DNA from: an uncultured Caulobacteraceae bacterium
GTDB lineage: Bacteria > Pseudomonadota > Alphaproteobacteria > Caulobacterales > Caulobacteraceae
Assembly: GCA_937138625.1 (NCBI GenBank)
Contig: CAKZPF010000004.1
Span: 62,001-126,000 of the forward strand
Length of the DNA stretch: 64,000 bases
Reading direction: 5' to 3'
Part shown: positions 11,275-54,895 of the stretch, in pieces
Numbering within the stretch: position 1 is the stretch's first letter
Layout of the letters: the number at the start of each line of letters is the position of its first letter
Program-made: the position numbers and the translations under genes
The notes under the pieces: generated by a model
The model's database searches: none
What the model was told of the DNA's origin: nothing
Seen by the model: the letters and a program-made list of their open reading frames with translations, nothing else

Positions 11275-14200
11275 TCAGCCAAAAAGTCCACCGCCACCAG
11301 AACCAAAGCCCGAATTGTTCTGGCCAAAGAACCCTGTGGATTGATTGCCGGTGATGGCCTGGATGCGCACCAGCGCATTTTGATAATGGGCGATACGATC
11401 TTGCATGTACTGGGTCGGCCCGTTGCCTTGCTTACCCGGTTTATCATCGCCGTATTTAAAGGCCATGCGCTCTTCCTTGGTCATCACGCTTTCCCGATAG
11501 GCCCGTTTCAAAGTCGAGATCGCATAGTTCAGGCGCTCGTCGGCGTATTTACGGTTTTCTTCGGTATCGATTTTCAGCTCTGAAGGCAGACGCAAACCAT
11601 AAATCGGACCGGTTACTGGCTCGATTTCGCGGCCTTTGCTGTCACGTTCGGTAATTCGAACCATTCCGGGCGCCAAGCCCAGGGCTTTCAAAACGTCTCG
11701 ACCTTCTTCACCTTCTTGCAGCAACACCGATTGCCCTTTGCGGGCGGTGATTTTCAAAACCTGGCCGTCATCCTTATAGCGGACCTCGGCGCGGCCATCG
11801 ATGCCCAGGCGCTGATTGATCTTGTTGGCCAGGGTGCGCAGGGTGTCATCAGCTTCGATGCGAATTTTCACCGGGCTGCGCTCGTTGCGGCTGAGATAGA
11901 AATAATCACCTGAGCGCAGAGAGCTGTTTTGTGTGATCAACTGGCTGGATGAATAATCAATGGTGCCGGTCGGCAAACCCAGCTTGGCCAAATCAGATGA
12001 GCCATCAGCCACACCAATGACCACATCCTGCAAGCGGGTGCCCGAGCGACCAAATTGTTTGGTGTAGTCAATGTTCAGGTCTGTGCCATCAAATGTCAGT
12101 TTGGCCAGAATACCATCGCGAGATCCGCGTTTCAGCTGGCCATCGAGCTCGCCATAGGTGCTGCCGCCCACATAAATGGCGCTCGCATCCGTGGTGCCGC
12201 CACCTGTGCCCTCGGTGCCCTCCTCACCTGGGGTCCAGGTGTTCGGTGTGCCTTCGGTCACGGTATAGTATGACACGCCGGCTTCGTCTTGTTCGCCGGT
12301 ATCAAGCCACATCAAAAACTCGTTAGAGCCAGAACCACTGTGCGGGTTCTGAATTTGTGTGGTGAGGCTGGTAGCCCCACTGCCGTCATTGTCCTCGTCA
12401 AACTCGGGGCTCAGGCCCGTGTCTGTGGTCGAACCCTGAAGATAGAAGGTACCAGAATTGAACTCACCGCCCGTCAGGGTGGCACCATCAACATTGTAAG
12501 CGTCTTCTTGGTTAATGGTGTAGGTGTTGGTCCCACTGGTATAGGTCACATCCAACTCATGTACGATGCCATCGCTACCACTGTTGCTGACAATGTATAT
12601 GGTTTGGTTTGCGCCTGTACTGGTATTGGGATCAATGATGATGTCCGCAGGATCCACATCCAGTCCAGGGGTGTCGGTATATAAGGCTTGCTGGGCAAAT
12701 TGCCCCGTGCTGGTTTCCCATTTGCCAACAGACACATTAATAATACCTGCCGTTGGCGAACCATCACGCTTGGCAAGAACAGCATGAACATTGCCATCGC
12801 CATCAACGCTCAGAGCTTCAACAGTGCGATTGGTCAAACCGGTGATGCTGTTGGTTTGCGTCAGGCTGGTGTCATACAGTCGGACTTCATTTTGGTCCGC
12901 GACATCATCATAGAAACCAACAGCCAAAGTGTTATTTTCAAAGGTCACGAGGGGTGAGGTGCCAGTAGCATAAGAAATGGCCGATGACTGCTGCAGCAAA
13001 TTGCCATCACTGTCGGTTTTCACCACATAGCCCGTGCCATCGGTGCCGTCAGTGATAAATCCATACAGATTGCCACTGCCGTCAAAATCATAGCTCTGCA
13101 GGGATCCCAAGCTCTCAACAGCTTGCAAGGCGGCTTCGATATTGGCGGCGTTATCGGCCTCGGTCAGCAAATTGCTGCGCATGGTCGAGAAATAATTGCC
13201 CCGGCTGTCCGCCAAATTCGAGGTGCCGATGGTCCCTGTCGAGGGGTCAAAATAAGCCGTCGCGCCTTCGTCTTGCTCGGCGGTATCGAGCCAGGTCACA
13301 AAGGTGTTGCTGCCAGAGCCCGTGTGCAAATTGGTAACACCCGAGGACAACGACACCACACCCGAGCCATCATCATCCTCGTCAAAGGTGGGGCTGAGGG
13401 CCGTATCCGTGCTGGCGCCATAGGTATAGAGCGTGCCATTGTTATAATCCGCGCGCTGAATGCTGGATCCCGACTGGTATTCATAGGTGCTGGTGTCATC
13501 AACCGTGAAGGTCCCGAAACCACCGTTGGTGGCATTGACTTCACGGACCAAGGCCCCGCCATCGCGATCCCCCACCAACATCAGACTGACATTGCTGCCC
13601 CCAGAGGTATGCACCGCGATGTCATTAATATTTTCATCAATCGAGGTTTGGTCACTGCTGTAAACATCATCACGACTGTAACCCGCGCCACTGTCATAGC
13701 CCCAGCGGCCCAACTGAATATTGACCACATTTCCGGTGCTGGTATCGATTTTCTGACTGGCAATATAGGCGTTACCATTGTCATCCAACTCGATGGCCAT
13801 GATGTCATGATCATTACCCACATTTTGAGACCCGACTGATGACGGTGTGCTCAGGGTCAAAACGCCACCACTGGCCGAGCTGGCAGATTCATCAATTTCT
13901 GTATAAATATGATAGCCGTCTGTATCCCGAATATAGCCCATGACGGCTTTGCCATTTTCAAACGCAATGCGGGGGGTGGTGCCCTCTTTGTAGTCATAAG
14001 TCGTTGAGGTGATATCGATGGTGGTTGGGCCACTGTCGGTGGTCACTTTGAAGACGCGGAAGGTGTCATAGCCTGTGCCACCACCAGATGTATCTTCGAT
14101 CAGACCAAAGATGTTGCCGTTTTCATCATAGTCATAATCCAGAACATTGCCGGCCCAGGCGTTGGCGTTTTGGATATCAGTCTCGTAGCCTGCCATGTCG

Positions 14201-17200
14201 TCGATCTCGGATTTGATCGCGTCATGATAGGTCTGCATGTAGGTGTTGCGGGCATCATCAGGCCCAAGCGCGCCAGGCGGCACGGTGCTGGTCGAAGCCA
14301 CGGCGTCTTCGTTGTTGGTGGGGTCTGTGCCGGGTGTGCCCCCACCCGTGCCTTCAATGGCCTCGACACCTGTTAGCACCAGCGAGTCGAGAATGTCATC
14401 ACTGACCGAGCCCACAAAAGCCACGGCCGCTGTGTCGTCGCCAGTATCCACACGGGCCACAAACCCGTCTTGCACGCCGTTTTGCGCGTTGGATAAACGG
14501 GTGGTGATGTTGCCCGCGCCCGATCCACTGTCGACGGTGAACTGCAAACTGGTTTGACTGGTGCCCCCGGCCACATAAAAGGCATCGCTGGCCGCCTTGA
14601 TGGATTTGATGCCACCCGTGCCAAGATTGCCAAGATCATAGACCTTACCGGCCGTAGGGGTGGTTTCGCCTTCGGCAACGCTGAAAATGCGCACCGTGCT
14701 GTTGGAGCCTTCAAGGCCCGCAACATATATCGTCTCGTCTCCTGTGCCCTCAGAGCCCCCCGAGCCCTCACCGCCAGAACCACCACCCGAAGGCTCGGCC
14801 CCTGGGTCACCAGTGGTGGGGTTATAATAGGCGATGGTGGCTTCATCATCCTCGGCAATATCAATCCAGGCGGCGATATCGTCTGTGCCGGAACCACTGT
14901 ATTCATTGATGATGCGCGTATCCATGCTGACGGCGCCGGTGCCGTCGTCACCCGCATCATAATCAGGGTCTAGGGATCCATTGCTGGCGGTGCCGTACGT
15001 GTACAGCGTACCGTTGTTGACGGTGGCATTGGTCAGCTCAGATCCGCTTTGGAAATCATAGGCGTCGTTGCTGTCGATGGTCAGGGTATTGCCAGCGTTG
15101 TCAAAAGTGAAATCAACCTTGCGCGCCAGGCCACCACCGTCGCGCCCACCCACCAGATAAATGGTTTGTTCGTCACCGGTGGCGGTATTGGGGTCGATGG
15201 CGATATCGTTGATAATCTCATCTAAATTCGAGCCGGACGCCGTGTAAATGGTGTCTTGGGCGAAATCATTATCGCCCACATCCCATTTGGCCACCGTCAA
15301 GTTTTCCACGTTATTGGTGTCGATGCCGCTGGAGGTATCATAATTGACACCTGCGATGATCAGGCTGCCTTCGTCATCGACCTTCAGGGCTGTTGGGCTG
15401 AAGCCTGTCGTGTCAAACCGATTGCCGTTTTGACTGGAAAAGAAGCTGAGACTCGTGCCGCCCGTGCTCTCAAAATTCAGGTCATGGGCCGTGTTGTTCA
15501 CGTATGTCAGGTTGTGGCGATACGAAATCCCCAGGGTATCGCCATTGACATCGATCTGGGGCGTGGTGCCATCCAAATAGGCACTCAGTCCCCCAGCGCC
15601 TTGTGTATAATAATAGTTGCCAGATGGGTTCGTGTTGCTGGGGTCGTCCACTTTCAATACGCGGAACGTTTTCAACCCCCCACCCCCGCCGGTGGTGTCT
15701 TCGATCAAGGCATACATCGCCCCGCTGTCATCGAAGGTATAGTCCAGCATGTCCCCAGCCCACGAGCCAAAGGTGCTTTGCATCACCCCTTCGACGGTTG
15801 CAGCGGCCTCGGCTTTGCTGAAGATATCATCGTGATAGGTGTCGATATAAGCGTCTCGACTGTCTGGCCCCGAGGTCCCCCCCGTACCTGCTGCCGTCGC
15901 CTGCGCCACCGCGATCGAGGTAATTTTATCATCGCTTGAGGTGCCATACTGATCCGTGAATATCAGCACGCCGTCTTCGTCGTATTTGCGGATGTAATTG
16001 TCATAACCGCCTTGCATATCATCGCCCGACAGCGATGATTTGGTGCGCCCACCCACATAAACGGAACCATCCGCGCCAATGGCCACGGCCGTGGCCTCGT
16101 CATCCAACACGCCACCTCGGCGACGAGTCCATTCTTCCTCGCCGCTAGCATCAAACTTGGTGACAAAGCTGTCTACACCATAACCAATGTCCAGGGTCGT
16201 CAAGCGTCCCTCGACCGCACCCGCCACAGCCACCGAGCCATCGGTCCCCACGGCCAGGGCATAACCTTTGCCGTCAACCGCCGCCCCCAGAACACGGGTA
16301 AAGACCACCTGCCCCGCACTGTCGTATTTCGTCAGGGCGACATCGCGATCGCCCTTGATGGGCTGGCCATCAATCTCGGCATTGGTTTCAGACAACACAA
16401 AATAGGAACCATCCGTATGGGTGGCACTGGCGCGGATCAGGGTTTCGCCGCCATCGGTTTCCAAAAAGTCTGACCAAGCCGTGTCGCCCAGAGTGCCGTT
16501 GGCCTCGACAAAACCAGTGGTGCGGGAAATGGGCTCGGAATCACTATCGAGAATGTTTCTCTCAGTGCCCGAGATAAAGATGTTGTCGTCTTCGTCCTCT
16601 AGCCCCTCGGCGGCGGCAAAACTGATGCTCTCCAGCAGCGAGCCTGAAATCTTAAAGCCCCATTTTTTCTCGGCGGTGATCGCGGTGTTCTCCTCGTCTG
16701 CCGAGGCCCCATCATCAACGATTTCATAGCGAGAAAACCGGCTGACCATACCGGCGTTTTCCAATTTTTGGTTCAGAAACGAAGCCACATTGTCCATGGT
16801 GCGGGTGGTACCGCCCATATCATCGAAATCCACGTTAAAGGTGATGGAGCTGCCATCCGCCTTGGTGGTGGTCATTTTGAACTGCACACGGTCGGCAAAC
16901 TGGCTGACCTCTTCCGTGTAGCTGCCGGTGTGCAAAGCCCCGGTTTTATAATAGGGATAATCGCGCGGCATATCGGTGGTGCTTTCCACCTTATCGGCGA
17001 CCTTTCCTTTCAACAGCGTGGTGTTATCCAGATCTAGGTCACGGAAATAGTTATTGACCTCACTCCAACCTTCATCAAACTTTTTCACAGCCCGGTCTTT
17101 TTCCAGGCTCGATGTGCCTTTGGCGCCGGCAAACTCCGACAAGGCTGACAGAGTGCGCAGCGCCGTGTGCAAGGCGAACATTTTCTTGTAATCTTTATCC

Positions 17201-17448
17201 AGCGCGTAGTTGCTGCCGCGCGCGGCATTTTCATCGATGAAATCTTTACCCGAAAAGGCATTGCGCACCAGCGCCTCATTTTCAGGCGGGTTATTACGCG
17301 GGTCCCACGGAGGAAGCGGTTGAGAACGCTGAGAAGATGAGGAATCGGCCTTGGTCGGCAAGACACCATTGACCCCGCCCAGGCGTAGGTTCACGCGGGC
17401 GCTGAGGTAACTCGATAACAGGTCCGTGCCAATTCCGAGAATGGCCAT
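11275..17448 (-). CDS. Giant FlaEY-like flagellar repeat protein, 2057 residues
   Basis: Residues 1-250 are a non-repetitive head with an amphipathic start (MAILGIGTDLLSSYLSARVN). Residues 310-525 carry SBBP-type beta-propeller repeats (KYDSAGQVVFTRVLG, TKFDASGEEEWTRRRG, RKYDEDGVLIFTDQYG). Three long homologous units follow at about 528-885, 1063-1405 and 1411-1730, separated by Gly/Thr-rich linkers. Residues 1750-1810 hold another SBBP repeat. Residues 1835-1925 resemble a flagellin hook-IN domain (DTLRTLANKINQRLG), and the tail is helical then Gly-rich. The overall plan resembles the FlaEY regulatory protein of Caulobacter flagellar clusters, but it is about twice as long. Composition is acidic and rich in Asp, Gly, Thr and Ser. 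There is no signal peptide, so flagellar export is possible. AAGGGGAG precedes the ATG. Function is unproven. Confidence 0.7.
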   Translation of the reverse strand: MAILGIGTDLLSSYLSARVNLRLGGVNGVLPTKADSSSSQRSQPLPPWDPRNNPPENEALVRNAFSGKDFIDENAARGSNYALDKDYKKMFALHTALRTLSALSEFAGAKGTSSLEKDRAVKKFDEGWSEVNNYFRDLDLDNTTLLKGKVADKVESTTDMPRDYPYYKTGALHTGSYTEEVSQFADRVQFKMTTTKADGSSITFNVDFDDMGGTTRTMDNVASFLNQKLENAGMVSRFSRYEIVDDGASADEENTAITAEKKWGFKISGSLLESISFAAAEGLEDEDDNIFISGTERNILDSDSEPISRTTGFVEANGTLGDTAWSDFLETDGGETLIRASATHTDGSYFVLSETNAEIDGQPIKGDRDVALTKYDSAGQVVFTRVLGAAVDGKGYALAVGTDGSVAVAGAVEGRLTTLDIGYGVDSFVTKFDASGEEEWTRRRGGVLDDEATAVAIGADGSVYVGGRTKSSLSGDDMQGGYDNYIRKYDEDGVLIFTDQYGTSSDDKITSIAVAQATAAGTGGTSGPDSRDAYIDTYHDDIFSKAEAAATVEGVMQSTFGSWAGDMLDYTFDDSGAMYALIEDTTGGGGGLKTFRVLKVDDPSNTNPSGNYYYTQGAGGLSAYLDGTTPQIDVNGDTLGISYRHNLTYVNNTAHDLNFESTGGTSLSFFSSQNGNRFDTTGFSPTALKVDDEGSLIIAGVNYDTSSGIDTNNVENLTVAKWDVGDNDFAQDTIYTASGSNLDEIINDIAIDPNTATGDEQTIYLVGGRDGGGLARKVDFTFDNAGNTLTIDSNDAYDFQSGSELTNATVNNGTLYTYGTASNGSLDPDYDAGDDGTGAVSMDTRIINEYSGSGTDDIAAWIDIAEDDEATIAYYNPTTGDPGAEPSGGGSGGEGSGGSEGTGDETIYVAGLEGSNSTVRIFSVAEGETTPTAGKVYDLGNLGTGGIKSIKAASDAFYVAGGTSQTSLQFTVDSGSGAGNITTRLSNAQNGVQDGFVARVDTGDDTAAVAFVGSVSDDILDSLVLTGVEAIEGTGGGTPGTDPTNNEDAVASTSTVPPGALGPDDARNTYMQTYHDAIKSEIDDMAGYETDIQNANAWAGNVLDYDYDENGNIFGLIEDTSGGGTGYDTFRVFKVTTDSGPTTIDITSTTYDYKEGTTPRIAFENGKAVMGYIRDTDGYHIYTEIDESASSASGGVLTLSTPSSVGSQNVGNDHDIMAIELDDNGNAYIASQKIDTSTGNVVNIQLGRWGYDSGAGYSRDDVYSSDQTSIDENINDIAVHTSGGSNVSLMLVGDRDGGALVREVNATNGGFGTFTVDDTSTYEYQSGSSIQRADYNNGTLYTYGASTDTALSPTFDEDDDGSGVVSLSSGVTNLHTGSGSNTFVTWLDTAEQDEGATAYFDPSTGTIGTSNLADSRGNYFSTMRSNLLTEADNAANIEAALQAVESLGSLQSYDFDGSGNLYGFITDGTDGTGYVVKTDSDGNLLQQSSAISYATGTSPLVTFENNTLAVGFYDDVADQNEVRLYDTSLTQTNSITGLTNRTVEALSVDGDGNVHAVLAKRDGSPTAGIINVSVGKWETSTGQFAQQALYTDTPGLDVDPADIIIDPNTSTGANQTIYIVSNSGSDGIVHELDVTYTSGTNTYTINQEDAYNVDGATLTGGEFNSGTFYLQGSTTDTGLSPEFDEDNDGSGATSLTTQIQNPHSGSGSNEFLMWLDTGEQDEAGVSYYTVTEGTPNTWTPGEEGTEGTGGGTTDASAIYVGGSTYGELDGQLKRGSRDGILAKLTFDGTDLNIDYTKQFGRSGTRLQDVVIGVADGSSDLAKLGLPTGTIDYSSSQLITQNSSLRSGDYFYLSRNERSPVKIRIEADDTLRTLANKINQRLGIDGRAEVRYKDDGQVLKITARKGQSVLLQEGEEGRDVLKALGLAPGMVRITERDSKGREIEPVTGPIYGLRLPSELKIDTEENRKYADERLNYAISTLKRAYRESVMTKEERMAFKYGDDKPGKQGNGPTQYMQDRIAHYQNALVRIQAITGNQSTGFFGQNNSGFGSGGGGLFG
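12259..13218 (-). repeat. Giant protein, long repeat unit 3
   Basis: Residues about 1411-1730, directly after unit 2. It opens with DSRGNYFSTMRSNLLTEAD, passes LQSYDFDGSGNLYGFITD and SNSGSDGIVHELDV, and closes with GSGSNEFLMWLDTGEQDEAG. The final block is nearly identical to that of unit 2. Confidence 0.85.
13234..14262 (-). repeat. Giant protein, long repeat unit 2
   Basis: Residues about 1063-1405. It opens with DARNTYMQTYHDAIKSE, passes GNVLDYDYDENGNIFGLIEDT and VGDRDGGALVREV, and closes with GSGSNTFVTWLDTAEQDEGA. It is separated from unit 1 by about 180 residues of SBBP-like sequence. Confidence 0.85.
14797..15867 (-). repeat. Giant protein, long repeat unit 1
   Basis: Residues about 528-885. 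The unit opens with DSRDAYIDTYHDDIFSKAEA, passes through GDMLDYTFDDSGAMYALIEDT, an IIINDIAIDPN-like strand and GGRDGG, and closes with SGSGTDDIAAWIDIAEDDEA. The same markers occur in order in units 2 and 3. Confidence 0.85.
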
Positions 17449-17541: not shown

Positions 17542-18078
17542 TTACTTTTGCGTTGATGAATAGGGCGAGATTTGCCCGTACATCAAGCTATCGACGAACT
17601 GGCCATTGGTAAAATGATGATCCTTCAAGCGCCCCTCGAGGGTAAAGCCCAAATCCGGCAACAGCGCCTGTTTCCGCGTGTCATGATCATAAATTTCCGC
17701 CCAGATGCGATGCAGGTTCATCTCCTGAAAGCCATAATTCAACAGCAAACGACCGGCTTCCGGCGCATAGACGTCGTCGATATACAGATCCTCGGCCCCG
17801 ATATAGATCGAAAAATCAGCACTGCGGCGAACGGGATCGATGTAACACAAGCCACAAGCCCCCAGTAGGCGGGCATTGTCCGGTGTAGTGATAGCGAACA
17901 TCCGCACCGCCGGTGATGTCAAGACCACCTCGTGGTACCATCGCCGCTGATCGGCCATAGACAGCTCGCGCACTTCACGAAAATACGTGCGATAGTCTGG
18001 CCGATTGCGCCAGCGCAGCAGGGTTTCCAAGTCCCCTTCTTCTATGGCGCGCAGCCCGACATGTTCACCGGTGATCAC
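17542..18078 (-). CDS. GNAT-family N-acetyltransferase, PseH-like
   Basis: A 178-residue protein of the RimJ/PseH type (GLRAIEEGDLETLLRWRNRPDYRTYF at the start, then LLGACGLCYIDPVRRSADFSIYIG, and a C-terminal LLPDLGFTLEGRLKDHHF). In the pseudaminic acid pathway PseH acetylates the amino sugar nucleotide. I place the start at GTG 18078, which overlaps the neuB stop by four bases and has GGAGGA at seven bases; a GTG at 18093 is weaker. Last gene of the minus-strand sugar operon. The substrate is inferred from context. Confidence 0.7.
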   Translation of the reverse strand: MITGEHVGLRAIEEGDLETLLRWRNRPDYRTYFREVRELSMADQRRWYHEVVLTSPAVRMFAITTPDNARLLGACGLCYIDPVRRSADFSIYIGAEDLYIDDVYAPEAGRLLLNYGFQEMNLHRIWAEIYDHDTRKQALLPDLGFTLEGRLKDHHFTNGQFVDSLMYGQISPYSSTQK

Positions 18079-19151
18079 AACAGATCCTCCCACATCAACG
18101 GCTCGCCCGCTTTCAAGGCGCGATTGAGACGTTTATCCGTAACCGTGGGCAAGGCATAGGGTTCCACCGAGCCCACGGGACGGGGCCGCAAAGGCTCGAG
18201 ATCACCACCGCTCAGCACCTGCCCTTCAGGCAAATCCCGCTTGGCGCATAAGGCCCGGCGTTGCACCACGGCGCTATCGTGTTCGTTGGCTTCGATGCGT
18301 TTCACACCATCACCAAGGGCCAGTTCTAACTCGCGGGTGCGCGCCACCATCTCGGCCCAGGTTTTCGGCGTCATCGAGAACGCATGATCCGGACCTTCAC
18401 GACTGTTGTCATCCGTAAAATGCTTTTCCACAACCCGCGCCCCAAGGGCCACAGCCCCCAACACAGCAGCATGCCCCGGCGTGTGATCCGACAAGCCCAG
18501 CACCATGCCCGGATAAGCGGTGGCGTAACCTTTCAGCACATACAAATTCACGCATGAAAAATTCTCGAGACTGCCCGTGTAATTGGTGTTGCATTGCATC
18601 AGACACAGCTTGCGTGTGTGGGCCAATGCGGCCTCAACGGCGCGCTGTACATCCACCATATCGGCGGCACCTGTGGCCAGAAATACCGGTTTGTTGCGAG
18701 CAGCGATGGCCCCAATAAATTGCGTCCAACCAATATCGCCCGAGCCAATTTTGAAGGCCTGCAACAGACCATCCATCAAGTCCAAAGCCGCAAAGTCATA
18801 GGGCGTGGTCATAAATTCAATGCCCGCCTTTTTGGCCTCGGCGTACAAGGTCTCGGTCCAGTCTCGTGGGGTTTGGTACTTTTCGAACACCTCATATACT
18901 GAACCTTGCCAATCCGCTTGATGCGCCATTTGCCCGCCCAGCGCCTTGAAGCCCGTATCAGAGACAATATCACGCGCCAGAAAGTGTTGGAATTTGGCGA
19001 CATCGGCCCCGGCCTCCTTGGCCAGCCAGATCAGGTCCTTGGCACGGGACAGGTCACCATCATGAGACGAGGCAATGTCGGCAATGAAATAGGTTGGACG
19101 GTCCAAAGCAATTTCTCGCTCGCCGACCCATAGCTGGTGATCATATCGCAT
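18075..19151 (-). CDS. neuB: NeuB/PseI-type nonulosonic acid synthase
   Basis: Condenses phosphoenolpyruvate with a six-carbon amino sugar to make a nine-carbon sialic acid-like sugar. A 358-residue protein. The TIM-barrel domain has FIADIASSHDGDLSRAKDLIWLAKEAGAD near 15-45, KFQHF, FKIGSGDIGW, SDHTPGHAAVLGAVALGARVVEKHFT and the DHAFSM motif. A C-terminal SAF domain covers about 285-350. The ATG at 19151 has GGAGGA seven bases upstream and overlaps the RmlD-like gene by 11 bases. The cluster suggests the product decorates flagellin. Confidence 0.88.
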   Translation of the reverse strand: MRYDHQLWVGEREIALDRPTYFIADIASSHDGDLSRAKDLIWLAKEAGADVAKFQHFLARDIVSDTGFKALGGQMAHQADWQGSVYEVFEKYQTPRDWTETLYAEAKKAGIEFMTTPYDFAALDLMDGLLQAFKIGSGDIGWTQFIGAIAARNKPVFLATGAADMVDVQRAVEAALAHTRKLCLMQCNTNYTGSLENFSCVNLYVLKGYATAYPGMVLGLSDHTPGHAAVLGAVALGARVVEKHFTDDNSREGPDHAFSMTPKTWAEMVARTRELELALGDGVKRIEANEHDSAVVQRRALCAKRDLPEGQVLSGGDLEPLRPRPVGSVEPYALPTVTDKRLNRALKAGEPLMWEDLL

Positions 19152-20025
19152 GGCGTGTTTCCTCCGCCACCAATTGGGCACAAACGCTGTTCAAATTTGG
19201 TAAAGACCAGGGCAGATGCGCTTGGAGCTTACGGCTGTCCATGCCACCGGCGCGCACCCGCGGCGGCACTAACCCTGCCACCGTGCCCGTTTTGACCTCA
19301 GCCGCCACCTCAGCTTGCTTCAGCAACTCCTGAATAAACTTCAGCTTTGAAAACACATCTGATGCACCCAGATTATAAAGCCCTGTGATGGGCATAACCG
19401 CGGCCTCCAGGATCGCTTTGGCTGCTGTTTCCACATCCAAAAGCGAGCAATAGGCATCGGCAAAGCCTGTAATCTCGCCTTGTTCTCGTGCCGTCTTCAG
19501 CACCCACGCCCCAAAGGGTAAGGCCTCGTTATGCTTAACTGCCGAGGTGAAGTTGGTGCGAAATATCAAAACATTCGAATAGCCTAATGCAAAGCTTTCA
19601 CCTGATAATTTCGTTTTTGCGTATATGTTATAGGGCTGAATTTGGCTCGATTCTGTGTGGGCCGCAGCCCCCTCACCTGCATAAATATGATCGGTTGAGA
19701 TGTGGACCAATCGTGTCTGGTCCGGCGACAAGACCTCGGTCAACACACGCACCAAATCGCTATGCAAGGCCTGGGCGCGGTCAGGCTCGGCTTCGCAGGC
19801 CGCAAGGCTGACCATGGCCGCACAATTGATCACCACAGATGGGCGGGTATCAGTCAGCAATCGCTGAACCGCGGCCCCATCGGTCAGATCCAGTTGATGA
19901 TCAGCATTCTGGCGCGCAACCGTTTCGACAACTTGGCCCTGGGTGCGCAATTGGCGCACCAGACGCGCCCCCAACAGGCCGGTCCCCCCCAGCACCAACC
20001 ACGGCCGCCCGGATCCCGGCATCAC
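19141..20025 (-). CDS. RmlD-like NAD(P)-dependent sugar nucleotide reductase
   Basis: A 294-residue short-chain dehydrogenase of the extended/RmlD type. It has a Rossmann GGTGLLGARLV near residue 13, a VVINCAAMVSLAACEAEPD segment and the catalytic YAKTKLSGE (Y-x3-K) near 135. RmlD enzymes reduce 4-keto sugar nucleotides. It overlaps the cytidylyltransferase stop by four bases. The actual sugar cannot be told from sequence; it probably tailors the nonulosonic acid or a linked sugar. Confidence 0.7.
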   Translation of the reverse strand: MMPGSGRPWLVLGGTGLLGARLVRQLRTQGQVVETVARQNADHQLDLTDGAAVQRLLTDTRPSVVINCAAMVSLAACEAEPDRAQALHSDLVRVLTEVLSPDQTRLVHISTDHIYAGEGAAAHTESSQIQPYNIYAKTKLSGESFALGYSNVLIFRTNFTSAVKHNEALPFGAWVLKTAREQGEITGFADAYCSLLDVETAAKAILEAAVMPITGLYNLGASDVFSKLKFIQELLKQAEVAAEVKTGTVAGLVPPRVRAGGMDSRKLQAHLPWSLPNLNSVCAQLVAEETRHAI

Positions 20026-20807
20026 GCCGCCAATTTACAGGGTCGTGTGGCGAATGTCGGCCGCAAGGCCTGCGCCAGGCGATCCAGGTCGACCTTATGC
20101 GCGTTGATGCCCAAAATATCCGGCCGTCTGAGGCACAAACTGGCAAGCTCGGCGGCACGGGCATACTCGGCCCGCGCGGGCCCCATAGCCTCGACCAAAG
20201 CGCGAAAAAAGCGCAAATCATCACCATAGTCCAAGGTCCAACGCAAGCGCGCCAACATGCCACCTGGTCCCGTAAAGTTCACACGGTTCAGGTCCGCGTG
20301 ACGACGAATCCAGGGCGTGACATGTTCCCGCTCATAGCCCTCTTGGGCCACGGCATCGGCCTGATGCAACAGACTGGCGGGCATCAGCTCACAATCCAAA
20401 CCATGCGGCCAACTTGGGGGCATATTGTTGCAAGCATAGTCCGCCTTATGACGAAAAAAAGTCTCGATCACATGGTTGCAAATGCGCGGGTCGATCAGCG
20501 GACAATCGCTGGTCACGCGCATGACAAATTCCGCCCCTGTATCCCTGGCCGCCTTGGCGGTGCGGCTCAGGACATCATGATCACTACCGCGCACGACCTT
20601 GTAGCCGGCCTGCCAGGCCAGGTCCGCCACGGCGTCACTGTCGGGCGCTTCAGACACCGCCACGACCACATATGCGCCTTCAATGTGCTGACATCGATCT
20701 AGACACCACAACAGGGCGGGCTTGCCGCCAATGTCTTCCAACACCTTGGCGGGCAAGCGGTTTGAGCCGCCACGGGCCTGCACAATCACATGCACGGGGG
20801 CTGTCAT
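20022..20807 (-). CDS. SpsF/NeuA-like cytidylyltransferase
   Basis: A 261-residue nucleotidyltransferase. The N-terminal motif VIVQARGGSNRLPAKVLEDIGGKP and MRVTSDCPLIDP (around 95-106) are typical of the SpsF/acylneuraminate cytidylyltransferase family, which activates nonulosonic acids as CMP sugars. Start and stop each overlap the neighbouring gene by four bases. A PseF role is likely given neuB and pseB, but KDO-like substrates cannot be excluded. Confidence 0.75.
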   Translation of the reverse strand: MTAPVHVIVQARGGSNRLPAKVLEDIGGKPALLWCLDRCQHIEGAYVVVAVSEAPDSDAVADLAWQAGYKVVRGSDHDVLSRTAKAARDTGAEFVMRVTSDCPLIDPRICNHVIETFFRHKADYACNNMPPSWPHGLDCELMPASLLHQADAVAQEGYEREHVTPWIRRHADLNRVNFTGPGGMLARLRWTLDYGDDLRFFRALVEAMGPARAEYARAAELASLCLRRPDILGINAHKVDLDRLAQALRPTFATRPCKLAA

Positions 20808-21682
20808 GCCTCGGCCTTTTGCAAGGGCGCGCGTGCCAGCAGGCGTTCACACAAGGCCGGCACAAAACCGCTGATGCGAAACACACTGGCCATCCAAAAA
20901 TAGGGGATCGCCAGGGGCTTGCCCTTCAGCAATGCGCGCAGGGGCCGCACGATCGGGTAGCGCACAAACAGATGATAAACCATGCTCCAGGCCCGTCCCG
21001 GGTGCTTGGTGCAAAAGCCCGCATCATCGCGGCCGTACCAACGGAACTTTTTGATATACGCCTGCAGGTCCGGGAAATGCTCCTGAGCCACCACCGTGCG
21101 ACCAATGCCAAAGCGAAACCGTTTCAACCGCATCAACCGATAGGAAAAGTCCGCATCATCCGAGACCTCGGGGTCGTTGTCCTCAAAACGGATATGATCA
21201 AACAGGGATTTCTTATAAAGGGCCGGCGCAGTACCGATCATGGTGCGGGGCCCGGGGATATGGTGAAAAACCTCCATAGCCGCATTTTCCGACTGCACCC
21301 AAAACCCGTCACCGGTCATGCGCACACCAGCCTGCACGACATCAAAACCAAAGTCCTGCATATCACGCCACAGACTGTCCAGCGTATCACCACCCACGCG
21401 GTGGTCGGCATCAATCATGGCCACCAGGTCATAACTGGCGGCATCGATGCCCTTTTGCCGATCTCGGGCCACACCGCCCTTGTCGCTGATGATCACTTGA
21501 TCGGCGTATCGTTTGGCGATTTCAACCGTGGCGTCACTTGAGCCCCCATCGACAACGATCAGCTCTTCTATGCCAGTGGCCTTCAGGGCCTTCAGGCAGG
21601 GCTCGATGCGGCGGGCTTCGTTCAGCGCAATGACCACCGCCGACATCGGCGGCCGAGGATCCAAAGCGGGGTGTGTGCACAT
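20804..21682 (-). CDS. Family 2 glycosyltransferase
   Basis: A 292-residue GT-A enzyme. It opens with SAVVIALNEARRIEPCLKALKATGIEELIVVDGGSSDAT, then IDADHR in place of a classical DxD, and a C-terminal hydrophobic stretch (YFWMASVFRISGFVP). ATG 21682 has GGAGG seven bases upstream and follows the methyltransferase stop by one base; longer readings enter that gene. It probably transfers a sugar in the same surface-glycan or flagellin pathway. Confidence 0.75.
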   Translation of the reverse strand: MCTHPALDPRPPMSAVVIALNEARRIEPCLKALKATGIEELIVVDGGSSDATVEIAKRYADQVIISDKGGVARDRQKGIDAASYDLVAMIDADHRVGGDTLDSLWRDMQDFGFDVVQAGVRMTGDGFWVQSENAAMEVFHHIPGPRTMIGTAPALYKKSLFDHIRFEDNDPEVSDDADFSYRLMRLKRFRFGIGRTVVAQEHFPDLQAYIKKFRWYGRDDAGFCTKHPGRAWSMVYHLFVRYPIVRPLRALLKGKPLAIPYFWMASVFRISGFVPALCERLLARAPLQKAEA

Positions 21683-21683
21683 A

Positions 21684-22505
21684 CTATATCCTCCGTAAAG
21701 CCGCGAGCGCGCAACCGGCCGCGTGTCCACGGCCATGACTGCTGACATCACTGAGGTCACCGGGTCCCGTAACCGCACGCCAACCATCTTCGGTTTCTCG
21801 GTAAAAGGCTTGTTCGATGACCTCAAAGCCTGGCGCGGCCATCAAACCCGCCCAGCTGCTGGCATTGTACTCATACTGACAGGCGTACAAACCCAAGCTG
21901 TCTTGCAAAATCGCCGGGCCGCCCCGCCCCATGGGCACGGTGACCACCACTATACCGCCAGGCTGAAGGGCTTTGGCACATTGGGCCATCACACGCGCAT
22001 CCGTGTCTGGGTCGCGGTGGGTCTTCACATCCTTAAGGTCTTTGGGGCGATCAAAGGCCCCGCCCCCTACCGACCCCGGCGCGTCAAAGCCGACGTGTTC
22101 CAAAGTCGAAACCAAGGCCACCAAATCATACGTCTGGTCTGGTAAATCGCAGCTGCGTACATCACCCAGCTGCACAGGCACTTGCAAAATCGCTTCGCGC
22201 CAGGGTTCAGGATAGCGGTTGGTGACGCTGGCCGGGGGGATAATATCCAAACCCGTGATCGCGACCCCCGCATCCTGGGCCGCCAACAACAGGCCCATAT
22301 AGTCGGGGCTGGCGAAGGTAAACCCCACATCCAGCATCCGTTTGGCATTACGGATATATTGGGCCGCAAAGGCGACCTCGATGGCACGTTCACTGGCACC
22401 CGCTGCCACCGCGCCACCATCGGATGTCAGCACCCCCGAGGCCAAAACGGCCATGGCACGGTCAAGATTGGCGCGATGTTGCGGGCGAAGGCAGTCCATA
22501 TCCAT
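21684..22505 (-). CDS. SAM-dependent methyltransferase-like protein
   Basis: A 273-residue class I methyltransferase fold. It has motif I (RMLDVGFTFASPD near 55-68), an acidic residue at the end of strand 2 (GLDIIPP), motif IV-like (DLVALVSTLEHVG) and a motif V region (GGIVVVTVPMGRGG). It is the first gene of the minus-strand sugar operon. The target is unknown; O-methylation of a flagellar sugar is plausible. Confidence 0.65.
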   Translation of the reverse strand: MDMDCLRPQHRANLDRAMAVLASGVLTSDGGAVAAGASERAIEVAFAAQYIRNAKRMLDVGFTFASPDYMGLLLAAQDAGVAITGLDIIPPASVTNRYPEPWREAILQVPVQLGDVRSCDLPDQTYDLVALVSTLEHVGFDAPGSVGGGAFDRPKDLKDVKTHRDPDTDARVMAQCAKALQPGGIVVVTVPMGRGGPAILQDSLGLYACQYEYNASSWAGLMAAPGFEVIEQAFYRETEDGWRAVTGPGDLSDVSSHGRGHAAGCALAALRRI

Positions 22506-52602: not shown

Positions 52603-52617
52603 CGGCACGGGTGTTGC
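52603..52617 (+). promoter_or_regulatory. sigma54 promoter of EF-hand-like gene 1
   Basis: CGGCACGGGTGTTGC matches the sigma54 consensus (YGGCACG-N4-TTGC) including the less conserved ACG. The predicted start near 52629 leaves a leader of about 32 bases. No GGCA-N5-TGCC palindrome is visible upstream in 52389-52602. Confidence 0.75.
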
Positions 52618-52660
52618 ACCGCTGCCCGCGCACTCTAACCACACATATAGGAGACCAACA

Positions 52661-53257
52661 ATGAGCGCAGGAAACCAAATTGACATCGCCTCAGTGGCGT
52701 ATACCCAAAGCCCCATTACCTATGACGTCAATGCTTTGCAAAGCGGTGACGCCAGCTTCCGTGACGTGGTGTTGTCACGCGCAGATCCAAACCGTGATGG
52801 TGTGATCGAAGCCGGGTCCGAGGCCATGCAGGCCGCCATGTTCCTGAACCAAATGGATTTTGGTCAAGATGGCATCGTGGATCTGGGTGAAGCTCATCAG
52901 TGGGCTGGTCAAGTCTTTAATAACGGCACCATGGCCATCAACCAAGGCGAAGACCGCCTACCTGAGCTTCAGGATAAACTGGATGAGGCCACAGCCGAGA
53001 TGGATACAGCTGCCGCGGAATTGACCGCTATGTTTGGCGTCAATGATGTGTCCGATATTAGCGTTGCCCAACGCCTCAGCAACCCACAGGCTCGTGCACT
53101 GTACAATACGTATGTGTCCGCTAAAAACGAAGCCACTATCTATCAGCGCGAAATTGATCACATCGCCAGCCAAGAAGTAGATATCAATGAAGCCCGTCTG
53201 GACATGTTCTACATGTATGGGGCTCTAGAAAATCTTGTGTTGAACGGCGGCAACTAA
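52661..53257 (+). CDS. EF-hand-like protein, family member 1
   Basis: A 198-residue protein of a family I do not recognise. Two Asp-rich loops sit close together: DPNRDGVIEAGSE (from Asp42) and DFGQDGIVDLGE (Asp66-Glu77). The second fits a canonical EF-hand loop with Glu at position 12. A helical second half follows (LPELQDKLDEATAEMDTAAAELTAMFGVND, and SNPQARALYNTYVSAKNEATIYQRE). No signal peptide or membrane segment. AGGAGA precedes the ATG. Calcium binding is inferred from motif only. It is paralogous to the next two genes and lies under its own sigma54 promoter. Confidence 0.8.
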   Translation: MSAGNQIDIASVAYTQSPITYDVNALQSGDASFRDVVLSRADPNRDGVIEAGSEAMQAAMFLNQMDFGQDGIVDLGEAHQWAGQVFNNGTMAINQGEDRLPELQDKLDEATAEMDTAAAELTAMFGVNDVSDISVAQRLSNPQARALYNTYVSAKNEATIYQREIDHIASQEVDINEARLDMFYMYGALENLVLNGGN

Positions 53258-53283
53258 GCGCCCTTCCCCACATTGACATGACG

Positions 53284-53315
53284 AACAGGGCCGCCACACG
53301 CGGCCCTGTTTTTTT
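53284..53315 (+). terminator. Terminator of EF-hand-like gene 1
   Basis: AACAGGGCCGC and GCGGCCCTGTT pair around CACAC and run into seven or more T. The first gene is therefore its own transcription unit. Confidence 0.9.
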
Positions 53316-53430
53316 ATGCGCTTATCAAGCTGTCCCATGGTGCAACACCAAACTGGCACACAGACCCCTCGCCGCATCCCAAACCTGGCCATTTCCCCTG
53401 AAAAGCGAGTTTTTCGAGACGTATTTCCCC

Positions 53431-53445
53431 TGGCACGCGTGTTGC
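53431..53445 (+). promoter_or_regulatory. sigma54 promoter of EF-hand-like gene 2
   Basis: TGGCACGCGTGTTGC is a perfect sigma54 consensus. It shares GGCACG-GTGTTGCACC with the promoter at 52603, so the control region was duplicated with the gene. The predicted start is near 53457. Confidence 0.85.
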
Positions 53446-53482
53446 ACCCTTTCCCTCAGACACCATTGCACGGGAGAACACC

Positions 53483-54091
53483 ATGAGCACCGCCAATTCA
53501 AACGCCCAGAACCAAATCCAAGTCTCGGCCCTGGCTTACGCCCAGGCCCCCATTGCCTATGATCAAATCGACAATCCTTTTTTCTCATCGATCTTCAGCC
53601 ACATTGACCCCAATCGTGACGGCGTGATCGAGCCCGGCATGGAAGCCGCCCAGGCCGCCTATATGTTGCATCAAATGGACATGGACCAAGACGGCATTGT
53701 CGATGTGCCCGATGCGCACCTTTATGCTTTTCATCAAGCTAACAATGCCTCGATTGCGTTGAAACATCATCGCGGCACCAACGGCACTCAACTGCAAGAC
53801 AATGTCTCGGCAGCACAGGCCAATCTCGCCAATATTGAAAACCAACTGACCAGCATGTTCGAAGTAGAAAATGTGGATGACATTTCAGTGGCCATGCGTG
53901 TCAGCAACCCCCAGGCCCGTGCGCTTTACAATCAATACAACGCCGCCAAGCACCAAGTGGAACAATCTGAGCGCGAGGTCGGCTATGCCGCTGCCAGTGC
54001 CTCGACCTTAGGCGCGCAACAATCCGATATGATGAGCCTTTATTATGACATGGAGTTTTTGGTCTCGGGCCATCAAAATATCACCATTTAA
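53483..54091 (+). CDS. EF-hand-like protein, family member 2
   Basis: A 202-residue paralogue of member 1. The loops are at the same positions: DPNRDGVIEPGME (from Asp42) and DMDQDGIVDVPD (Asp66-Asp77), the latter a near-ideal EF-hand loop. The C-terminal helix pattern LTSMFEVENVDDISVAMRVSNPQARALYNQYNAAK aligns with member 1 without gaps by eye. No signal peptide. GGGAGAACACC precedes the ATG. No clear terminator follows, so member 3 may be partly co-transcribed. Confidence 0.8.
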   Translation: MSTANSNAQNQIQVSALAYAQAPIAYDQIDNPFFSSIFSHIDPNRDGVIEPGMEAAQAAYMLHQMDMDQDGIVDVPDAHLYAFHQANNASIALKHHRGTNGTQLQDNVSAAQANLANIENQLTSMFEVENVDDISVAMRVSNPQARALYNQYNAAKHQVEQSEREVGYAAASASTLGAQQSDMMSLYYDMEFLVSGHQNITI

Positions 54092-54205
54092 GACTGACGG
54101 ATTTTTTTCTGAACGGGGCCCCTTTGCCATTGCTGGCGAACATTGACGGTTAAGATGGCACCTTGTATATAAATTTTATCATTACTTATTTAAAAGGTTC
54201 GCATT

Positions 54206-54895
54206 ATGTCCAACCCCTCCATTTCCATCGAAGCTTTGCGCAACATTGCCTTCGATCTTTCTTATGATAAAGGCACCCTAGCGAAAATTGATCTTGGCAT
54301 TGGGGATGCCGACTTCCAAAGCTTTGTGTTCGCCATGGTCGACCCCAATCAAGATGGCAAGATTGAAAGCGGCGCTGAGGCCGCTGAGGCCGCCAAGCTA
54401 TTGGCCAAAATGGATTACACCGACGCGGACCCTTTTGCTCTGATTTATGAAGTCGACGACACTTCTTACTCTGCTAGCTTTTTTCCTGATGACCTGAAGC
54501 CTGGCAGCATCACGCCCGCCGAGCTTTATTTGCACCAAATTGATGGGCGCGACACTGCGATAGACCTGAGTGAAAAGATCTCCGCAACAGTGGAAACGAT
54601 GGACGACAATCTGGAAACCGTGAAAGCGGGCCTGAATGCCCAAATCGACGACTTTCTTACCGCCCAAGGTGTTGAGTCTATAAAAGACTTGCCCGATGCG
54701 GCAAGGCATTCTCCTGGGTTTATAGAGTTGTCTGAAACTATAGAGCTATATAGAGGAATAGAAAGCCGGCTAGATGGGCTGCGCACACAAGAGCTTAAGA
54801 TGCTCAACCAAGTGCTCGCCAGCTATGAACGTGTTGGCCATGCCGCCGAGATTTTGCACCAAGACCTCAAAGCAACCCGTGAGCTCAAAGACTAA
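54206..54895 (+). CDS. EF-hand-like protein, family member 3 (divergent)
   Basis: A 229-residue, more distant paralogue. Loop 1 DPNQDGKIESGAE (from Asp46) is kept. Loop 2 has decayed and a roughly 30-residue insert follows (DADPFALIYEVDDTSYSASFFPDDLKPGSI). The C-terminal half is helical (VETMDDNLETVKAGLNAQIDDFLTAQGVESI). Bases about 54670-54780 use ATA, AGA, CTA and GGA codons that are rare in neighbouring genes, hinting at a different origin or relaxed selection. The upstream 54092-54205 gap is AT-rich, with no sigma54 element at proper spacing. Confidence 0.7.
   Translation: MSNPSISIEALRNIAFDLSYDKGTLAKIDLGIGDADFQSFVFAMVDPNQDGKIESGAEAAEAAKLLAKMDYTDADPFALIYEVDDTSYSASFFPDDLKPGSITPAELYLHQIDGRDTAIDLSEKISATVETMDDNLETVKAGLNAQIDDFLTAQGVESIKDLPDAARHSPGFIELSETIELYRGIESRLDGLRTQELKMLNQVLASYERVGHAAEILHQDLKATRELKD

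What the first reader, a model, noticed from the sequence alone, without database searches (positions are those of the whole stretch)
52603..54895. Three tandem EF-hand-like paralogues, two with consensus sigma54 promoters: candidate new flagellum-co-regulated family
Three adjacent genes encode proteins sharing a DPNxDGxIExGxEA signature followed by a second DxDxDG-type loop and a helical C-terminal half (SNPQARALYNxY in the first two). None has a signal peptide. Genes 1 and 2 each have a near-perfect sigma54 element (52603-52617 and 53431-53445), the promoter class used by flagellin and rod genes here. Flagellin export also needs no signal peptide. The idea that they are calcium-responsive parts or cargo of the flagellar system is inference.
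Basis: partly seen in the sequence, partly recalled or inferred. Interest (0 to 1): 0.8.

Follow-up and report, generated by a model that had tools for sequence, protein, structure and literature searches.

The report
Sigma54-driven EF-hand proteins, possibly exported
Three neighbouring genes in a small-genome bacterium encode lineage-specific calcium-binding-like proteins, two of them under the same type of switch as its glue-anchor and its protein-injection genes, which suggests that they may be exported proteins that fold when they meet calcium.

Summary
Three tandem paralogues (198, 202 and 229 aa) share a compact EF-hand-like region and a helical C-terminal half; none has an evident signal peptide. 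Genes 1 and 2 are split by a strong terminator, and each has a sigma54 element 52-58 bp before its start (gene 2 consensus, gene 1 one mismatch). Gene 3 has none and only one intact loop. A fourth, shorter paralogue lies elsewhere in the genome. No full-length relative was found in 398 related genomes, 385 of the same class, or the other collections searched. AlphaFold models protein 1 (pLDDT 86) as an EF-hand pair on a long helical hairpin.

The flagellar link is not specific. Equal or comparable elements precede the holdfast-anchor operon and an operon of a non-flagellar type III secretion system (injectisome). The stretches read hold 36 signal-less calcium-loop proteins, several in tandem arrays, one inside the injectisome cluster; few have sigma54 elements. 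Most likely reading: exported type III substrates that fold on meeting calcium, as reported for the MIIA domain. Export, calcium binding and sigma54 dependence are untested. A lanthanide role is unlikely: two EF hands, no signal peptide, no PQQ alcohol dehydrogenase.

The parts
52603..52618 (+). sigma54-type -24/-12 element of gene 1 (CGGCACGGGTGTTGCA, 1 mismatch)
   Evidence: weight-matrix score 15.1 against 12.1 for the best of 224 reversed controls
52661..53257 (+). gene 1, 198 aa: EF-hand pair plus long helical hairpin
   Evidence: AlphaFold model pLDDT 86.0, pTM 0.62
52784..52822 (+). gene 1 EF loop 1 (DPNRDGVIEAGSE; Pro at position 2, acidic residue at 13 instead of 12)
52856..52891 (+). 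gene 1 EF loop 2 (DFGQDGIVDLGE)
52883..53245 (+). gene 1 predicted helical hairpin (helices at residues 75-125 and 142-195)
53283..53311 (+). rho-independent terminator-like stem (12 pairs, then a T run) between genes 1 and 2
53431..53446 (+). sigma54-type -24/-12 element of gene 2 (TGGCACGCGTGTTGCA, 0 mismatches)
   Evidence: score 19.6
53483..54091 (+). gene 2, 202 aa: closest paralogue of gene 1 (44% identity)
   Evidence: sub-threshold EF-hand_1 match, 20.2 bits against a cut-off of 25.4
53606..53644 (+). gene 2 EF loop 1 (DPNRDGVIEPGME)
53678..53713 (+). gene 2 EF loop 2 (DMDQDGIVDVPD)
54206..54895 (+). gene 3, 229 aa: divergent paralogue with one intact loop; no sigma54 element
   Evidence: poor model, pLDDT 52.2
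54341..54379 (+). gene 3 EF loop (DPNQDGKIESGAE)

Best explanation
Genes 1-3, with a fourth copy elsewhere in the genome, are a lineage-restricted paralogous family of acidic proteins without signal peptides: a compact EF-hand pair fused to a long helical hairpin. Genes 1 and 2 are separate units with sigma54 promoters, in the same promoter class as genes for polar appendages (holdfast anchor, an injectisome operon and, more weakly, flagellin and rod genes). Most likely the products are non-Sec exported proteins of a type III pathway, more likely the injectisome than the flagellum. At low cytosolic calcium the EF pair would be loose and threadable; outside, or in a target cell, calcium would fold it and lock the hairpin. 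Shown by sequence: the genes, promoter elements, paralogy, predicted fold of protein 1, presence of RpoN, FlbD and injectisome genes, and the shared element class. Inferred: sigma54 dependence, calcium binding, export, route, and the folding switch.
For: Sigma54 elements above control, conserved between paralogues while the flanks diverge. RpoN; FlbD 800.9 bits against a cut-off of 750, NtrX 695.1 against 600. A non-flagellar type III system on contigs C1/C2: SctJ, SctN, SctQ, SctR, SctT and SctV exceed NCBIfam cut-offs; its SctV is 32% identical to the genome's FlhA-like protein. A consensus sigma54 element with gene 2's score lies 86 bp before the ATG of an SSB-like gene that is followed by a weakly YscE-like and a 65-aa gene in that cluster. 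hfaABD also has a consensus element (HfaA and HfaD above cut-off). A rule-based scan of 287 genes found 36 calcium-loop proteins without signal peptide or TM helix, several in tandem paralogue arrays, one inside the injectisome cluster (L150:5107-6729). With 4 housekeeping members dropped, the N-terminal 25 residues of the other 32 are richer in N and S and poorer in E, R and K than those of 155 other proteins, as is said of type III signals (recalled). Precedent: calcium-induced folding of an EF-hand-like domain of a type III-associated protein (PMC6506597, abstract and passages).
Against: No direct evidence of export, calcium binding or expression. No chaperone gene was recognised beside the trio, which is not near the type III genes. 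Of the 32 calcium-loop genes only 4 (genes 1 and 2 and two in L120, one of whose elements lies inside the upstream gene) have a sigma54 element above the control, against 5 of 155 others; no k-mer or dyad stands out upstream (20 and 18 of 100 label shuffles do as well for 6- and 7-mers; dyads). The N-terminal bias is modest and uncorrected for 20 residues. Loop 1 is non-canonical (acidic residue at 13) and no Pfam EF-hand model reaches its cut-off. Only the best of five AlphaFold models is confident (86.0; the next is 62.6). No needle or translocator family matched the C-terminal parts. Completeness of the injectisome is not shown: SctD, SctS and SctU fall below cut-offs, the needle is only guessed, and only an N-terminal secretin fragment was found. 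The element in the type III cluster is placed by taking the ATG where the SSB domain begins; the ORF as called starts upstream of it.
Confidence: 0.4

Rival explanations
1. Cytosolic calcium sensors or buffers: EF-hand proteins that stay in the cell, bind calcium that enters during surface contact and act through their coiled-coil half on a partner (for example in the swarmer-to-attached switch), expressed from sigma54 with the polar organelles.
For: No signal peptide; EF pair plus coiled coil is a plausible sensor layout; shared promoter class with hfaABD. The best PDB matches of the family profile are eukaryotic cytosolic calcium sensors (guanylyl cyclase-activating protein 1, E 0.0006, then neuronal calcium sensor 1). 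It needs no export step.
Against: Does not explain the tandem, signal-less calcium-loop proteins in the stretches read or the one inside the injectisome cluster.
Confidence: 0.27
2. Flagellar parts or flagellar-export cargo: calcium-responsive proteins exported by FlhA/FlhB and attached to or released through the filament.
For: Same promoter class as flagellin and flgF by element sequence; FlbD present; long helical hairpin as in axial proteins (general resemblance only).
Against: No flagellin, rod, hook or cap family matches; not in or near a flagellar operon of the window; in strength the sigma54 elements are closer to those of hfaABD and the injectisome operon than to the flagellin ones.
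Confidence: 0.15
3. Lanmodulin-like metal binders that chelate lanthanides rather than calcium.
For: phmmer of protein 2 against PDB chains returns only two sequences up to E = 5, both lanmodulins, aligned without gaps over the EF pair but weakly (E 0.081 and 0.098); proline at loop position 2 and 12 residues between loops are two of the published hallmarks (PMC10232371).
Against: Two EF hands instead of four, no signal peptide, no PQQ alcohol dehydrogenase above cut-off in the genome. With the family profile, calcium sensors rank first and lanmodulins only at E 0.37 and 0.49. Both hallmarks also occur in an ordinary EF-hand protein of another genome (L149).
Confidence: 0.05
4. Fast-evolving orphan genes of no settled function, where the sigma54 elements are a relic or regulate weakly.
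For: No homologues found outside the genome; one paralogue shortened; gene 3 degenerate in loop 2.
Against: Codon positions 1 and 2 differ less than position 3 between paralogues (0.44, 0.33, 0.64 for genes 1 and 2); strong coding scores; a conserved promoter block; a confident best model from three sequences.
Confidence: 0.13

Closest known systems
MIIA-domain proteins (NopE1/NopE2 of Bradyrhizobium, VIC_001052 of Vibrio coralliilyticus; type III-associated)
   Same: Acidic, with EF-hand-like calcium loops; the VIC_001052 domain is reported to be disordered without calcium and to fold on binding it, proposed as post-secretion host sensing (PMC6506597, abstract and passages).
   Different: No DUF1521 among the Pfam matches up to E = 1; here a recognisable EF pair plus a coiled-coil hairpin, no cleavage site known, and export is unproven.
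Lanmodulin (6mi5, 8fns)
   Same: Compact adjacent EF hands 12 residues apart with Pro at loop position 2.
   Different: Two rather than four EF hands, no signal peptide, long helical C-terminal half, no lanthanide-type alcohol dehydrogenase above cut-off in the genome.
Periplasmic bacterial EF-hand proteins (for example Caulobacter CaBP, PMC13171946, outline and abstract)
   Same: Small bacterial EF-hand proteins; this genome has one of its own with a signal-like start and loops 24 residues apart (L117:4486-4953).
   Different: Those carry Sec signals; this family has none, has a coiled-coil half, and two members bear sigma54 elements.
RpoN-dependent flagellar genes with FlbD-type activators (PMC3930126, search listing only)
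   Same: Promoter class and presence of FlbD.
   Different: No flagellar domain or neighbourhood; no proof of FlbD control.

Membership tests
EF-hand superfamily | 12-residue D-x-[DN]-x-[DN]-G loop ending in an acidic residue, between two helices | tested here: met
   Loop 2 of proteins 1 and 2 ends in E or D at position 12 (position 3 is G in protein 1); loop 1 has the acidic residue at 13 in the trio, but at 12 in the fourth paralogue; helices flank both loops in the model of protein 1.
EF-hand superfamily | Pfam EF-hand model above its gathering score | tested here: not met
   Best is protein 2, PF00036, 20.2 bits against 25.4.
EF-hand superfamily | Calcium binding | not testable with these tools
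   Needs ITC or CD.
Lanmodulin (hallmarks as in PMC10232371) | Adjacent EF hands separated by 12-13 residues | tested here: met
   Loops start at residues 42 and 66 in proteins 1 and 2, so 12 residues lie between 12-residue loops.
Lanmodulin (hallmarks as in PMC10232371) | Proline at position 2 of at least one EF hand | tested here: met
   DPN in loop 1 of all four paralogues.
Lanmodulin (hallmarks as in PMC10232371) | Four EF-hand motifs | tested here: not met
   By motif, two in proteins 1 and 2, one in protein 3 and in the fourth copy.
Lanmodulin | Signal peptide (periplasmic) | tested here: not met
   Hydropathy rule only.
Flagellar axial protein (flagellin, rod, hook) | Flagellin or rod/hook domain | tested here: not met
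   No such match up to E = 1 in Pfam or NCBIfam, while the window's three flagellins and a FlgEFG-type protein match well.
Sigma54-dependent gene | -24/-12 element at a promoter distance in a genome with RpoN | tested here: met
   Genes 1 and 2; not gene 3.
Sigma54-dependent gene | Loss of transcription in an rpoN mutant | not testable with these tools
   Needs an experiment.
Type III secretion substrate | No Sec signal and a type III apparatus in the genome | tested here: met
   the completeness of the apparatus is not shown.
Type III secretion substrate | N-terminal type III signal | tested here: inconclusive
   Group bias towards N and S and away from E, R and K over 32 against 155 proteins; no predictor was available.
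Type III secretion substrate | Apparatus-dependent export | not testable with these tools
   Needs sctV and flhA deletions and secretome analysis.
Type III needle or translocator | Match to a needle or translocator family | tested here: inconclusive
   No such match for the C-terminal parts in Pfam up to E = 10 (three proteins) or in PDB sequences up to E = 10 (proteins 1 and 2); fold matches are generic hairpins.

The most novel reading that the evidence does not exclude
The trio belongs to a large, lineage-specific arsenal of calcium-loop proteins that a sigma54-controlled injectisome in a flagellated, holdfast-bearing bacterium with a small genome exports, with calcium as the fold-on-arrival switch. 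In it, compact EF-hand heads are fused to a long coiled-coil hairpin, and attachment (hfa), injection and part of the cargo are switched on by one sigma factor.
Probability: 0.3. Interest if true: 0.82.

Novelty: new variant of a known kind. Interest (0 to 1): 0.6.

Why it matters
If true, a swimming, surface-attaching bacterium would couple holdfast, injectisome and perhaps flagellum through one sigma factor, and would carry a family of substrates whose folding is gated by calcium. That would make an open question testable: whether calcium-gated folding, reported for type I substrates and proposed for MIIA proteins, is a general strategy for type III cargo. Even if export is wrong, the family is an EF-hand/coiled-coil design without detected relatives, with a clean sigma54 signature on two members.

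Tried and rejected
Homologues: of nine weak-hit loci read in six frames (seven from other genomes, two from the own genome), eight printed a frame with a DxDxDG-type motif and one (L025, own genome) did not; the eight are EF-hand proteins with a signal-like hydrophobic stretch at the start or after an internal Met, unlike the family outside the loops (judged by eye). L025 corresponds to a signal-less 175-aa protein (L127:3723-4250) that may be a distant relative (profile E 0.0016). Both genome-contig scans, one viral-contig scan and tblastn of plasmids and phages gave no relative.

Needle resemblance: I wondered whether the SNPQARALYNxY turn and second helix resemble type III needle proteins (recalled). 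PDB sequence and Pfam searches of the C-terminal parts found no needle family, so the idea was dropped. Foldseek and VIA-align gave only generic helical hairpins (no E at or below 1e-3, best Z 9.1); pore-forming-toxin and HlyD rows are read as common arrangement. No lanmodulin or flagellar axial protein was noticed in the 50 rows listed, which proves nothing.

A repressor-type palindrome (GTGTTGCAC, 3 in the window, all at this locus; 10 of 100 shuffles reach 3) overlaps the -12 region and was not pursued. Shared upstream motif of calcium-loop genes: the best 6-mer and 7-mer (CAAACT, CAAACTG) are matched by 20 and 18 of 100 label shuffles, and no dyad reached five sequences. The model of gene 3 is too poor to use. 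PHROGs gave only weak matches (best E 0.013). The EF-hand expansion is clear only by the loose first-look count (77 in 2.0 Mb); by accepted matches (21) the genome is merely among the densest of 60.
Full report
1. Observation. The three ORFs, their coordinates and the absence of evident signal peptides are confirmed. Proteins 1 and 2 are 44% identical over 192 aa; protein 3 is divergent and keeps one intact loop. A fourth member, 142 aa as called and 131 aa from its ATG, lies on contig C3 just after a guanylate-kinase-like gene (named by eye). Its loop 1 has the canonical 12-residue spacing, whereas the trio has the acidic residue one place later. A profile of the four finds these four in the own genome at E of 5e-31 or better; the next place has E 0.0016 and is a signal-less 175-aa protein on C9 that may be a distant relative. 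No call names the organism; gene content suggests an alphaproteobacterium.

2. Promoters. Gene 2 has a 16/16 match and gene 1 a 15/16 match to TGGCACRNNNNTTGCW. At low stringency the window has no excess (22 against 30 expected), so the claim rests on site quality. With a recalled weight matrix, scored over 224 upstream regions of the stretches then held, genes 2 and 1 rank 1st and 6th (19.6 and 15.1), above the same 224 regions read backwards (best 12.1). The elements of genes 2 and 1 start 52 and 58 bp before the ATG. A 30-nt block around them is 80% identical between the two genes, and the flanks diverge. A terminator-like 12-pair stem separates gene 1 from gene 2, so each looks like its own unit; the scan finds 4 such sites in the region against 3.4 expected, but this one has by far the longest stem. 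Gene 3 has no such element (5.6) and only a weak sigma70-like match.

3. What else shares the element. RpoN is present, with three strong activator candidates among seven matches. One lies in a fliF-like, fliG-like ... flhA-like gene run (by eye) and is FlbD by its curated model (800.9 bits against 750), one is NtrX (695.1 against 600), and the third, a response-regulator type, reaches no cut-off among the 25 models shown. The genome has five perfect TGGCACRNNNNTTGCW sites: before gene 2; before hfaABD (HfaA and HfaD above cut-off; HfaB as CsgG); before a glmM-like gene (by eye); near a gene at C4:453493 that I did not search; and on contig C2, 86 bp before the ATG of an SSB-like gene followed by a weakly YscE-like and a 65-aa gene. 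There the ORF as called starts upstream of the element; I take the ATG where the SSB domain begins. A weaker element (12.1) precedes the SctY-like gene. The three flagellins score 12.4, 11.3 and 10.9 and flgF 12.4, at the edge of the control.

4. A second type III system. Contigs C1 and C2 carry a non-flagellar apparatus. SctJ, SctN, SctQ, SctR, SctT and SctV exceed NCBIfam cut-offs, 6 of 10 proteins given; SctS, SctU and SctD are below theirs but match the non-flagellar models best; the 65-aa needle candidate matched nothing. SctO exceeds the Pfam score of YscO and SctK is just under; a 205-aa secretin N-terminal fragment exceeds two cut-offs; YscE-like and SctY-like matches are weak. SctV and the genome's FlhA-like protein are separate, at 32% identity. 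The assembly is reported as 98.78% complete with no contamination.

5. Calcium-loop proteins. Of 287 genes in the window and stretches fetched, 36 have a calcium-loop motif and neither signal peptide nor TM helix. The stretches were chosen partly around EF-hand hits, so this is no genome-wide rate. Several lie in tandem paralogue arrays (in L115, L118, L120, L123, L124 and the trio). One, L150:5107-6729, is encoded inside the injectisome cluster. Of ten such proteins given to Pfam (from L115, L116, L118 and L120-L124), five match nothing, three match EF-hand models, one FG-GAP and one a low-complexity model. After four housekeeping members were dropped (FliM and a FlgG-type protein, and two judged by eye as queA-like and DnaK-like), the N-terminal 25 residues of 32 proteins against 155 are enriched in N (p 0.002) and S (0.016) and depleted in E (0.002), R (0.001) and K (0.017), by label permutation without correction for 20 tests. 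Only 4 of the 32, against 5 of 155, have a sigma54 element above the control, and no shared upstream word stands out, so sigma54 is not the general control of this class. The three window proteins are acidic (net -21, -16, -24).

6. Fold. AlphaFold on the three-row alignment gives protein 1 a mean pLDDT of 86.0 and pTM 0.62; only the best of five models is that good (the next is 62.6). It shows an EF-hand-like pair and two long helices, 75-125 and 142-195. No PDB or viral match reaches E 1e-3, and VIA-align rows are generic hairpins, best Z 9.1. By sequence, protein 2 finds only two PDB sequences up to E = 5, both lanmodulins (E 0.081 and 0.098), aligned without gaps over the EF pair; but the profile of all four ranks eukaryotic calcium sensors first (best E 0.0006) and lanmodulins at 0.37 and 0.49. 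Two lanmodulin hallmarks (12-residue spacing, Pro 2) are met; four EF hands and a signal peptide are not; no PQQ alcohol dehydrogenase reaches its cut-off (44.3 bits against 480).

7. Distribution. Genomes with a match at the thresholds used, the own genome included each time: 3 of 198 relatives with protein 2, 5 of 398 relatives by profile and 3 of 385 class members by profile; the samples overlap. The others rest on the EF loops in differently built proteins. Scans of genome contigs (twice), viral contigs, plasmids and phages were empty.

8. Mechanism. Shown by sequence: a conserved sigma54-class element on two paralogues; presence of RpoN, FlbD and injectisome genes; the same element class on hfaABD and an injectisome operon; a predicted EF-pair/hairpin fold. 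Inferred: export by a type III route, and calcium as a folding switch after export. The closest published mechanism is the MIIA domain, disordered and acidic without calcium and folded with it, proposed as post-secretion host sensing (PMC6506597, abstract and passages). Rivals are a cytosolic sensor, flagellar cargo, a lanthanide binder and an orphan without settled role.

9. Literature. Seven searches listed no paper that by title or opening lines is about this family or about FlbD control of an injectisome; the listings were capped (for example 12 of 214, 10 of 27). I read passages of PMC10232371, PMC6506597 and PMC12700997 and the outline with abstract of PMC13171946; the rest was seen in listings only. 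In PMC12700997 the one passage shown with 'type III secretion' was in the reference list. The library is open-access only, so none of this shows absence from print.

Noticed in passing
L151 (G000:C1:12000-21956), L152, L150:1372-8467: A non-flagellar type III secretion apparatus in a flagellated genome of 2.0 Mb; SctD has a Y4YQ C-terminal domain and the only secretin piece found is a 205-aa N-terminal fragment, which recalls the split secretin of rhizobial systems (recalled).
   Followed up: partly
L150:7455-7898 (-): An SSB-family gene sits first in the putative sigma54-driven operon with weakly YscE-like and 65-aa genes, inside the type III cluster.
   Followed up: no
L115:969-5973, L118:4221-5577, L120:651-6336, L123:3968-5630, L124:3311-4381: Neighbouring signal-less paralogues, many with DxDxDG or FG-GAP-like loops; further such neighbours lie in L116 and L126 without detected similarity. 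Those in L120 are rich in N, Q, W and P, and two genes there have sigma54-like elements (the second lies inside the upstream gene).
   Followed up: partly
L127:3723-4250 (-): 175-aa signal-less protein, the next-best profile hit after the four paralogues (E 0.0016), with an acidic loop; possible distant fifth member.
   Followed up: no
window 11275-17448 (-): 2057-aa protein without a Pfam match up to E = 0.0001 near the flagellin cluster, with repeated propeller-like segments between helical-looking ends; possibly a giant flagellin-like or surface protein.
   Followed up: no
window 17542-21826: Sugar-biosynthesis block (NeuB, cytidylyltransferase, glycosyltransferase, epimerase, acetyltransferase) next to three flagellins, perhaps for flagellin glycosylation.
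   Followed up: no
L143:1824-5811: Three tandem genes with closely similar starts (1824, 3312, 4876); the middle one matches the phage Mu F domain (PF04233), an arrangement seen in polymorphic toxin cassettes (recalled).
   Followed up: no
L122:2920-4269 (-): A glmM-like gene (by eye) has a perfect sigma54-type element 116 bp upstream (score 18.9), unexpected for a cell-wall precursor gene.
   Followed up: no
window 53340-53348 (-): An inverted extra copy of GTGTTGCAC lies about 90 bp upstream of the gene 2 element; the three copies in the window are all at this locus.
   Followed up: partly
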